From NCBI GenBank assembly GCA_947625615.1, contig CANQPB010000007.1, forward strand, positions 16,881 to 80,880: a stretch of 64,000 nt of DNA. Reading direction: 5' to 3'. The stretch comes from an uncultured Clostridia bacterium (GTDB lineage: Bacteria; Bacillota; Clostridia; Oscillospirales; Ruminococcaceae). This document shows, one piece after another, positions 30,447 to 60,896 of this stretch; the first letter of the stretch is position 1, and the number at the start of each line of letters is the position of its first letter. The position numbers were made by a program, and so were the translations under genes. The notes beneath the pieces are model-generated. The model was not told the origin of the DNA, did no database searches, and worked only from the letters and a program-made list of their open reading frames with translations.

Positions 30447-30492
30447 GCATAAGTTGTCTCCGTTTGGGCAGTTTTTTGCCCTCAAAAGGAGT

Positions 30493-30616
30493 GTCCATTC
30501 CGCACGCATTATCAGAAATATTTAGATGCGTCGCCACAGGCGACACCTTGAAATTCTGATATCTGATTTCTAACTTCTATCTTCTATCTTCTTGATGTGG
30601 CCATCAGGCCACATCA
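30493..30616 (+). repeat. Dispersed repeat family R2, copy 1
   Basis: GTCCATTCCGCACGCATTATCAGAAATATTTAGATGCGTCGCC..AGGCGACACCTTGAAA...CTTCTATCTTCTTGATGTGGCC..GGCCACATC; matches 42985-43105 inverted and partly 39606-39675. Confidence 0.75.
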
Positions 30617-36855: not shown

Positions 36856-37118
36856 AATGAGAAAAGTTTTCGCCGGCCTTTTTCAAAAGGCAGCAGGGGT
36901 CTCGGGGGCGGAGCCCTCGAGCCGCGATCGCAATCGCGGAATTTCCCCGGAGCGGGCCGAGCAGGCACGCTCCGGTCAATGCGAAGCGAAGCGCAGGACG
37001 GGGAGAAAAAAACTGTCCGGTGGACAGTTTTTTCGTGGGGAGACCCTCGCCGGGGGTCTCCCCGGCAAGGCGCCGCAGGCGCCTTGCAGCCCGGAAAAGG
37101 CGAAAGGAAAAATTTTGT
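36856..37118 (+). repeat. Modular multi-hairpin repeat family R1, copy a
   Basis: AAAGTTTTCGCCGGCCTTTTTCAAAAGG...CGCA-loop hairpin...ACTGTCC-GGT-GGACAGT...GGGGAGACCC-TCGCC-GGGGGTCTCCCC...GCAAGGCGCC-GCA-GGCGCCTTGC. Confidence 0.75.
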
Positions 37119-37137
37119 AGTTTACTTTCGCGTTGCG

Positions 37138-42984: not shown

Positions 42985-43105
42985 GATGTGGCCTAAACGG
43001 CCACATCAAGAAGATAGAAGTTAGAAATTAGAAGAGAAGTTAGAGTTTCAAGGTGTCGCCTGCGGCGACATATCTAAATATTACAAATAATGCGGCGGAA
43101 GGGAC
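42985..43105 (-). repeat. Dispersed repeat family R2, copy 2 (inverted)
   Basis: Reverse complement of the 30493-30616 unit with substitutions. Confidence 0.75.
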
Positions 43106-43159
43106 GCTCCCTTTGGGGGAGTATGTATGCAGCAGGTTTTATTTGCCTCGCTTCACTCA

Positions 43160-43500
43160 GCAAATCGGGGAAACCACGCTGCGCTCAGACTATAGCGGTT
43201 GTCGTACTGGCTGCGCGCAGCTGCTGCCGAGCCCATAGGGCTCGGCCAAACTAAAGGTCGTTTCTATAACAGGGTTTTCCCCATAGCCCCTTTCCGAATG
43301 CGAGGCGCCTGAAGCGCCTCGCCGGGGGGAACCCCGGCGAGGGTTCCCCCCGGCCCGAAACAGTCCACCGGACTGATTTCGGGCTCCCCTCCTGCGCTTT
43401 TTTTGTGAGAAAGATTTCGCAGTTTGCGGGCTGCGACCAGAGGCTGCTCGCCTCTGGACTCTCGCAAACCTTTTGAAAAAGGTTTGATCGAAAACTTTTA
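43160..43500 (-). repeat. Modular multi-hairpin repeat family R1, copy b (inverted), plus adjacent GCCGAGCCC module
   Basis: Minus strand AAAAGTTTTCGATCAAACCTTTTTCAAAAGGTTTG...CAGTCC-GGT-GGACTG...GGGGGGAACCC-TCGCC-GGGGTTCCCCCC...GCGAGGCGC..GGCGCCTCGC then GCCGAGCCC-TAT-GGGCTCGGC. Confidence 0.75.
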
Positions 43501-45892: not shown

Positions 45893-46253
45893 ATGAAAAA
45901 GTTTTCGCCGGCCTTTTTCAAAAGGACGCAGGGGTCGAGGGGCGTGCAGCCCATCGTCGCGCTCCGCAGAGCGCGAAATCCTCCGGGGCGTGCCGAAGCA
46001 GGCACGCCCCGGGATAATGCAAAGCGAAACGCAGGAGGGGGAGCCCGAAACAGTCCGGTGGACTGTTTCGGGCCGGGGGAACATGTTATATGTATTTAAA
46101 TATGTTTAGCCGAGCCCAATGGGCTCGGCAGCAGCTGCGCGTAGCCGGTTCGACAAGCGTCAAAGTCCGGGCGCAGCGTGGTTCCCCCTGCGAGGCGTCT
46201 TGGGCGCCTCGCAGCTCGGAAAGGGGCGCGGGGAAAACCCCGCAGGGGATTGT
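45893..46253 (+). repeat. Modular multi-hairpin repeat family R1, copy c, with internal GCCGAGCCC module
   Basis: AAAGTTTTCGCCGGCCTTTTTCAAAAGG..., TCGCGCTC-CGCA-GAGCGCGA, GCCCGAAACAGTCC-GGT-GGACTGTTTCGGGC, GCCGAGCCC-AAT-GGGCTCGGC, GCGAGGCG..CGCCTCGC. Confidence 0.75.
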
Positions 46254-46416
46254 CCCCGATTTGCAGAGCGCAACGCGAAAGAATACTGCAAAACCGTATT
46301 TTCGTATTGCTGACTTTCCCGATAGTCGTTATATAACCGTATGCTGTCAACATACGGCAACCGCTGCACCTAAAGTGCCGTGCCTAATTGCGACTTTGCA
46401 GCATACCTTTGGGAAC

Positions 46417-59024: not shown

Positions 59025-59189
59025 TAAAAATACCTCTTTTTTATTTTAAAGTTGAAGCGTCAAATCAATAGGTCTGCGCTCCTATTATAGCAGACCCCGC
59101 GCAATTTTGCAATAGATAAAATAATGGATTATATATTGCAGAAAAAGCGGGCGGAAATTTCCTCCCGCCCGCCGCAAAACGACGCCTTT

Positions 59190-60896
59190 TTATTTCTTTT
59201 TCATATGCTTTCTGACAAACTCGTTCAGCGCGTCCTCGTCGATATAGGAATACCAATCCTCGGGCAGGGCCCTGAACCCCTCTTTTTCCATGGCCGCCAC
59301 CGCTATCTCGGTCAGCACGTCTTCGTCAACATAATCTAACCAGTCATAGGGGATCGCCTTTATCCCGCCTTTTTCGGCGGCCTCTTTAGCGATTTTCGAA
59401 AGAACGTCTTCGTCAACAAACGGAAGCATCGGCGTCGGAACGCTGTCGAGGCCTTCCCCGGCTTCGCCGCTCCCGCTTCCGTCTTCCTTGCCGGCGGGGG
59501 AGTTCTCGCCTTCGCTGTTAAGATTTTTACTCTTATTTATGCGTTTTCTTACAAACTCGCTCAGCGCGTCCTCATCGATATAGGGATACCAATCCTCGGG
59601 CAGGGCCCTGAACCCGTCTTTTTCCATGGCCGCCACCGCTATCTCGGTAAGCACGTCTTCGTCATCATAGTCAAGCCAAGTCTCGGGAATTGCGCTTATT
59701 CCGTCTTTTTCGGCGGCCTCTTTAGCGATTTTCGAAAGAACGTCTTCGTCAACAAACGGAAGCATCGGCGTCGGAACGCTGCCGAGGCCTTCCCCGGCTT
59801 CGCCGCTCCCGCTTCCGCCTTCGCTGTTAAGATTTTTACTCTTATTTATGCGTTTTCTTACAAACTCGCTCAGCGCGTCCTCATCGATATAGGGATACCA
59901 ATCCTCGGGCAGGGCCCTGAACCCGTCTTTTTCCATGGCCGCCACCGCTATCTCGGTCAGAACATCTTCGTCATCATAGTCAAGCCAAGCCTCGGGAATT
60001 GCGCTTATTCCGTCTTTTTCGGCGGCCGCTTTTGCGATTTCCGAGAGAATATCGTCGTCAACGTAATCCAGCCAGGTGTCGGGAATCGCGCTGATTCCGT
60101 TTTTTTCCGCGGCTTCTTTCGCGATTTCCGAGAGAACGTCGTCGTCAACGTAATCCAGCCAGGTGTCGGGAATCGCACTGATTCCGTCTTTTTCGGCGGC
60201 TTCTTTTGCGATTTCCGAGAGAATATCATCGTCAACATAATCCAGCAAGGTATCGGGAATTGCGCTTATTCCGTCTTTTTCGGCGGCCGCTTTTGCGATA
60301 TCGCCGATATATTCCTCGTCAACAAACGGCAGCCAATCCTCGGGTATTGCGTTAATCCCGCCCTTTTTGACAGCGTCTACCGCCAGCTCGCCTATAAGCT
60401 CGTCGCTTAAAAACGGCAGCAGCGACGCCGGAACGCTGTCGAGGCTTTCTATGGCCTCGCTATTCCTGCCGCCGTCTTCTTTGGAGGCAGGGGAGGCTTC
60501 GTCTTCGCTCAGGAGATTTTTCCTCACAACGCTGTCCACCTGGGCGTCGACAAGTATCGGGGCTATTTGATTTATCTCCTCGGCCGACATTTCCGGCGCT
60601 TTCTCCTCGCTTATGTCGGTGACGAGCTTCGCCGCGCGCTCGCTGCCAAGTATCCTGTCCACGCTGACGTCGAACAGCGAGGCCAGCTCCATAAGGTTGG
60701 CGATGTCGGGGCGGCTTTGGCCCCTTTCCCAGTTCGAGACCGCCTGAAAGCTCACGTTCAGCCTGTCGGCAAGCTCGGATTGGGTGATTCCCGCTGCCTT
60801 GCGAAGCTTAGAGATGTTTGCGCCGACCCTCATAATGTCGAAGACCTCGCTCTGAGGTTTCTTTAAAATTTCGTTTTTTGATTTTCCGAAGATCAT
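59190..60896 (-). CDS. XRE-family HTH regulator with ~13 tandem 29-aa repeats
   Basis: MIFGKSKNEILKKPQSEVFDIMRVGANISKLRKAAGITQSELADRLNVSFQAVSNWERGQSRPDIANLMELASLFDVSVDRILG then repeats of AIPDTWLDYVDDDxLSEIAKEAAEKDGIS; RBS AAAGGA before 60896. Confidence 0.85.
   Translation of the reverse strand: MIFGKSKNEILKKPQSEVFDIMRVGANISKLRKAAGITQSELADRLNVSFQAVSNWERGQSRPDIANLMELASLFDVSVDRILGSERAAKLVTDISEEKAPEMSAEEINQIAPILVDAQVDSVVRKNLLSEDEASPASKEDGGRNSEAIESLDSVPASLLPFLSDELIGELAVDAVKKGGINAIPEDWLPFVDEEYIGDIAKAAAEKDGISAIPDTLLDYVDDDILSEIAKEAAEKDGISAIPDTWLDYVDDDVLSEIAKEAAEKNGISAIPDTWLDYVDDDILSEIAKAAAEKDGISAIPEAWLDYDDEDVLTEIAVAAMEKDGFRALPEDWYPYIDEDALSEFVRKRINKSKNLNSEGGSGSGEAGEGLGSVPTPMLPFVDEDVLSKIAKEAAEKDGISAIPETWLDYDDEDVLTEIAVAAMEKDGFRALPEDWYPYIDEDALSEFVRKRINKSKNLNSEGENSPAGKEDGSGSGEAGEGLDSVPTPMLPFVDEDVLSKIAKEAAEKGGIKAIPYDWLDYVDEDVLTEIAVAAMEKEGFRALPEDWYSYIDEDALNEFVRKHMKKK
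59213..60425 (-). repeat. Intragenic tandem repeats (87-bp unit; 309-bp higher-order duplication)
   Basis: gatttttactcttatttatgcgttttcttacaaactcgct block at 59522 and again at 59831. Confidence 0.85.

What the first reader, a model, noticed from the sequence alone, without database searches (positions are those of the whole stretch)
36856..37118. Modular multi-hairpin repeat (R1): compensatory stem changes with fixed loops across three copies
Copies at 36856-37118 (+), 43260-43500 (-) and 45893-46253 (+) share the same order of blocks. They begin AAAGTTTTCG..CCTTTTTCAAAAGG. Next is a hairpin with loop CGCA (CCGCGAT-CGCA-ATCGCGG in a, TCGCGCTC-CGCA-GAGCGCGA in c, TCGCAG..CGCA..CTGCGA in b). 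A hairpin with loop GGT follows (ACTGTCC-GGT-GGACAGT in a versus ACAGTCC-GGT-GGACTGT in c). Then a hairpin with loop TCGCC (GGGGAGACCC/GGGTCTCCCC in a versus GGGGGGAACCC/GGGTTCCCCCC in b). Last is GCAAGG..CCTTGC in a versus GCGAGG..CCTCGC in b and c. Stems differ in paired positions while loops are kept, which argues for selected secondary structure (RNA or ssDNA) rather than decayed sequence. Short ORFs called inside (e.g. 36857..37120, 45893..46099) look spurious. Function is unknown: a non-autonomous mobile element or a structured RNA are both possible.
Basis: seen in the sequence. Interest (0 to 1): 0.8.

Follow-up and report, generated by a model that had tools for sequence, protein, structure and literature searches.

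The report
Interspersed multi-hairpin mobile DNA repeat
The three copies belong to an apparently undescribed family of short, non-coding repeats built from several DNA hairpins and scattered through the chromosomes of gut Clostridia; in sister bacteria they look like small passenger transposons that insert at transcription terminators, while in this genome the enzyme that moved them was not found.

Summary
R1 is a real multi-hairpin repeat: 36 strict and about 40 alignable copies in the 2.17 Mb genome, relatives in 12-18 same-genus species, and the same core in many gut and rumen Clostridia, including the isolate Caproiciproducens galactitolivorans. Stems covary strongly (95.8% of cells paired; 370 double-change cells against 113 in shuffles) while loops (GTCCnnnGGAC, ACCCTCGnCGGGG) and GCGCAGGA are nearly fixed. 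It matches no Rfam family, phage or plasmid and has no consistent ORF. Imperfect pairs show no G-U excess over A-C, unlike tRNAs, and orientation to genes is random. This favours DNA-level palindromes over a functional RNA. In sister genomes the core sits in 245-260 bp MITEs whose ends (CAGnCTGTCGAnAAA) match an IS1182-family IS found in the window's genus; both insert by duplicating a whole stem-loop (24-39 nt). Best reading: a non-autonomous hairpin-cassette MITE family, IS1182-mobilised in some lineages. In the window's own genome no TSD, reliable TIR or transposase was detected, so its mobiliser is unresolved. Copies b and c carry a second repeat (R2) in a hairpin loop. What keeps the core conserved is unknown.

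The parts
36862..37092 (+). R1 copy a (5' end to just past hp8; usual 3' terminal hairpin missing or diverged; 3' limit approximate)
36875..36891 (+). hp1 GGCCTTTTTCAAAAGGC
   Evidence: helix 1 covaries
36901..36921 (+). hp2 CTCGGGGGCGGAGCCCTCGAG
   Evidence: helix 2
36922..36939 (+). hp3 CCGCGAT-CGCA-ATCGCGG
   Evidence: helix 3
36945..36975 (+). hp4, extra hairpin present in part of the genus
36991..36998 (+). conserved linker GCGCAGGA
37007..37033 (+). hp6 AAAAAACTGTCC-GGT-GGACAGTTTTTT
   Evidence: helix 4
37037..37063 (+). hp7 GGGGAGACCCTCGCCGGGGGTCTCCCC
   Evidence: helix 5
37065..37087 (+). hp8 GCAAGGCGCC..GGCGCCTTGC
43137..43499 (-). R1 copy b, full length, ends GATTTGC..GCAAATAAAA
43176..43272 (-). 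R2 repeat sitting in the loop of hp9 of copy b
   Evidence: (I1)
45897..46257 (+). R1 copy c (3' limit approximate)
46083..46179 (+). R2 repeat sitting in the loop of hp7 of copy c
   Evidence: (I1)

Best explanation
R1 is a family of non-autonomous mobile DNA elements (MITE-like) with a conserved core of about 150-160 nt made of at least five short, nearly perfect hairpins. In at least one related lineage the core lies between terminal inverted repeats of the IS1182 type and was inserted by a transposase acting in trans, which recognises a target stem-loop, often terminator-like, and duplicates the whole stem-loop. In the window's own genome the same core spread to about 40 intergenic places with different outer ends, gained extra hairpins and was invaded by other repeats at its hairpin loops. 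Shown: the repeat family, the covariation, TIR and palindromic TSD in sister genomes, and the matching ends of an IS1182 IS. Inferred: that IS1182 transposase moved R1, and that the structure acts as DNA. Not resolved: what moved R1 in this genome and what the core is for.
For: Copy number and scatter. In sister genomes whole-palindrome TSDs of 24-36 nt (L140, L186, L209, L210, L211) flank ends of the type CnnTGTCGAnAAA. An IS in the window's genus has TIR CAGACTGTCGAAAAA, an exact 39-nt palindromic TSD and an IS1182 transposase (NF033551, E=1.9e-116). [quoted passage not shown] Random orientation to genes. G-U 15 against A-C 17 in stems, versus 20 and 0 in tRNAs (Fisher p=3.5e-5). No phage or plasmid carriers.
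Against: In the own genome no TSD, no reliable TIR and no DDE_Tnp_1_6, DDE_Tnp_1, rve or Y1 transposase domain. Most R1-positive species of the genus, and four of the five TIR-type sister genomes, also lack the IS1182 transposase domain. A transposase needs only the ends, so IS1182 mobilisation alone does not explain why the core is conserved. Another lineage has different ends (L217, L138: TTCACGrAAAGTTGGGGAAT).
Confidence: 0.6

Rival explanations
1. R1 is a functional structured RNA (sRNA or cis-regulator) that has multiplied in the genome.
For: Strong covariation with fixed loops and one conserved linker; very stable fold.
Against: G-U pairs are no commoner than A-C mismatches, unlike tRNA. 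No orientation bias to genes. No Rfam match at gathering score and only sub-threshold hits. Multi-copy, mosaic and patchy.
Confidence: 0.15
2. The stems stay paired because imperfect palindromes are turned into perfect ones by template switching or hairpin repair, with little selection on structure; R1 is a decaying MITE remnant.
For: Double changes (370 cells) far outnumber single-side changes that keep a pair; symmetry of G-U and A-C at DNA level. The mechanism itself is from my own knowledge of quasipalindrome mutation.
Against: Number, order and loops of the hairpins and the mostly unpaired GCGCAGGA are kept across many MAG lineages, which drift plus repair alone would not keep.
Confidence: 0.17
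3. R1 is a REP/BIME-like element moved as single-stranded DNA by a Y1 (IS200/RAYT-type) transposase.
For: Hairpins near both ends, no TSD and no reliable TIR in the own genome; A-rich left flank.
Against: No Y1_Tnp domain in the own genome; TIR and TSD in sister lineages.
Confidence: 0.08

Closest known systems
IS1182 family / IS1272 stem-loop-targeted transposition (PMC5678879)
   Same: Ends CAGnCTGTCGAnAAA of the TIR-type R1 copies are shared with an IS1182 IS of the window's genus; the target is a stem-loop; the whole stem-loop is duplicated (pathway b of that paper's model).
   Different: R1 has no gene. IS1272 itself was reported to replace the stem-loop, not duplicate it. The own-genome copies show neither TIR nor TSD.
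Bacterial MITEs and small intergenic repeat units (e.g. the enterobacterial RU units of PMC2759123)
   Same: Short, intergenic, multi-copy, non-coding; TIR plus TSD in sister lineages.
   Different: The internal core is highly conserved and made of at least five covarying hairpins, and outer ends differ between lineages.
BOX elements of pneumococcus (PMC3049150; details from own knowledge)
   Same: Modular interspersed repeat with variable module content.
   Different: No sequence match was tested; the R1 core has a fixed order of hairpins shared across lineages.
REP/BIME
   Same: Extragenic palindromes, mosaic copies.
   Different: No RAYT/Y1 transposase found here; the unit is much longer.

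Membership tests
MITE | Short, non-coding, many dispersed copies | tested here: met
MITE | Terminal inverted repeats | tested here: inconclusive
   Met in Lapin-022, -005, -004, -003-2 and -030 copies and in RGIG3116 copies; not convincing in the own genome (17 copies, mean p 0.26)
MITE | Target site duplication | tested here: inconclusive
   24-36 nt in sister genomes; none in the own genome (mean longest match 5.6 against 5.8 shuffled)
IS1182-mobilised MITE | Ends match an IS1182 element | tested here: met
   Sister lineages only: CAGnCTGTCGAnAAA in both; transposase NF033551. Not met for the own-genome copies
IS1182-mobilised MITE | IS1182-type transposase in the same genome | tested here: inconclusive
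   Domain PF13751 present in G061, G004, G007, G012; absent from G000 and from G060, G062-G064
REP/BIME (RAYT-moved) | Y1 transposase in the genome | tested here: not met
Known Rfam RNA | Score at or above gathering threshold | tested here: not met
   only sub-threshold hits
Structured RNA | Covariation with tolerated G-U wobble | tested here: inconclusive
   Covariation yes; wobble excess over A-C no, but the numbers are small
Structured RNA | Discrete transcript | not testable with these tools
   No RNA-seq available
BOX element | boxA-boxB-boxC sequence modules | not tested
   Recalled resemblance only

The most novel reading that the evidence does not exclude
The hairpin core is a portable DNA cassette that is selected in its own right and has been carried by several MITE types with different ends across gut Clostridia, for example as a bidirectional terminator that makes insertions harmless or as a stem-loop landing pad for structure-guided transposases.
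Probability: 0.25. Interest if true: 0.7.

Novelty: new variant of a known kind. Interest (0 to 1): 0.5.

Why it matters
It is a large, apparently undescribed repeat family in gut Clostridia, with a direct sequence link to stem-loop-targeted IS1182 transposition, a mechanism that rests on few examples. It offers natural substrates (MITE, target hairpin, candidate transposase) to test that mechanism. It also illustrates that strong stem covariation can reflect DNA palindromes rather than RNA, and it would help annotators drop spurious small ORFs.

Tried and rejected
Rfam at gathering and relaxed thresholds: nothing credible. Y1 transposase, DDE_Tnp_1, rve and DDE_Tnp_1_6 in the own genome: none; other transposase families were not searched. 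Two tandem reverse transcriptases as mobilisers: their presence does not follow R1, being absent from most R1-positive species. TSD in own-genome copies: none. Empty site of copy a by synteny: gene order differs and flanks are only about 70% identical, so no clean empty site. The first TIR pattern was too strict and found nothing. Phage and plasmid collections: no match. Literature in the held library: no description of this repeat found. ORFs: the open length in one frame varies from 7 to 128 codons between copies, so no conserved peptide.

Full report
Observation. Reading the three copies directly confirms the order of blocks and the named hairpins; exact positions are. The left end AAAAGTTTTCG is sharp. 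Both folded copies are about seven standard deviations more stable than shuffles.

Copies in this genome. The full-length copy is about 300 nt, from AAAAGTTTTCG to TTTGCCGAGC..GCGAGGCAAATAAAA. Copies are mosaics: the same slots hold alternative versions of hp1, hp2, hp3, hp6 and hp7. Copies lie between genes with no orientation bias: left gene 16 same and 17 opposite, right gene 20 and 13. Reading frames are not conserved.

Distribution. With a DNA query 18 of 60 relatives matched, nearly all in the genus; by strict pattern 12 of 31 genus genomes (own included) and none of 68 others sampled in the family and order. A few hits (Pelobacter, Tersicoccus) look like chance. No phage or plasmid record matched. 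The distribution is patchy.

Structure. A sequence-only alignment of 48 diverse cores was scored against the named hairpins: 95.8% of cells paired against 79.7% in shuffles and at most 56% in slid versions; 27 of 46 pairs change on both sides; 370 double-change cells against 113.5. Invariant or nearly invariant parts are GTCC..GGAC, ACCCTCG.CGGGG and GCGCAGGA. RNAalifold independently returns the same five hairpins. Among anchored hp3 and hp6 stems, G-U pairs (15) do not exceed A-C (17), whereas 13 tRNAs from the same loci give 20 and 0 (Fisher p=3.5e-5). The tRNA caller itself favours G-U, which exaggerates the contrast. The result suggests palindromes kept at the DNA level; it does not exclude RNA.

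Mobility. In sister MAGs (Lapin-022, -030, -005, -004, -003-2, -002) the core sits in a 245-260 bp unit with ends of the type CnnTGTCGATAAA and TTTTTCGACAnnCTG, flanked by direct repeats of 24-36 nt that are complete palindromes, several of them terminator-like (L140, L186, L209, L210, L211). In the window's genus an IS1182-family IS (L241, transposase E=1.9e-116) has TIR CAGACTGTCGAAAAA and an exact 39-nt palindromic duplication; L242, L243 and L244 show the same left end beside palindromes. The published IS1272 study describes stem-loop-directed transposition and models whole stem-loop duplication as one outcome (PMC5678879). Mobilisation of R1 in trans by such an enzyme is therefore the best-supported mechanism for those lineages; it is inferred from ends and targets, not shown.

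Own genome. Here neither TSD nor a reliable TIR is seen, and none of four transposase domains tested was found. Two tandem reverse transcriptases exist but do not track R1 across species. The copies may be relics, or moved by an enzyme not searched for. No clean empty site could be built.

What the core is for. Transposases need only ends, yet hairpin order, loops and GCGCAGGA persist across lineages while the outer ends change (L217 and L138 have a different TIR). Either the core is useful (terminator, landing pad, protein site), or it is kept partly by palindrome-correcting repair plus descent from active masters. I could not separate these. A terminator scan of the region found no excess over shuffles, so the terminator idea has no support from that scan and is otherwise untested.

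Noticed in passing
window 43176-43272 (-) and 46083-46179 (+); L024, L030, L035, L037: R2, a ~97-nt repeat (GTTATAGAAAC..GGCCGAGCCC..GCGCAGCGT), repeatedly sits in the loop of R1 hp7 or hp9 with the stem largely kept, suggesting insertion aimed at hairpins.
   Followed up: partly
L031, L032, L033, L036, L040, L041: R3 (AAAGTCCGGCAAAGCCGG..TTTCGCGTTGCGCT), another repeat inserted in R1 at several positions, in short and long forms.
   Followed up: partly
window 30488-30602 and 42999-43094; L015, L017, L025, L027, L031, L032, L042: Further repeat families lie in arrays next to R1 (GTCGCC..GGCGAC block in the window; CATATCAAACGCC..GAGAGGGGGTTCC block downstream of other copies).
   Followed up: no
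G000:C4:44355-47256 (L261, L262): Two tandem divergent reverse transcriptases; one protein is 100% identical in G003 although the G003 genes compared here are about 70% identical in DNA, suggesting recent horizontal transfer.
   Followed up: partly
window 59173-60405: Tandem repeat with 87-nt period (29 codons), possibly a repetitive protein.
   Followed up: no
alignment A1 (window copy b included), columns 120-122 against 163-165 and 183-185: The purine run after GCGCAGGA tends to copy the 5' arm of hp7 (GAG with GAG, AAG with GAA), so it might pair with the 3' arm of hp7 as an alternative fold.
   Followed up: partly
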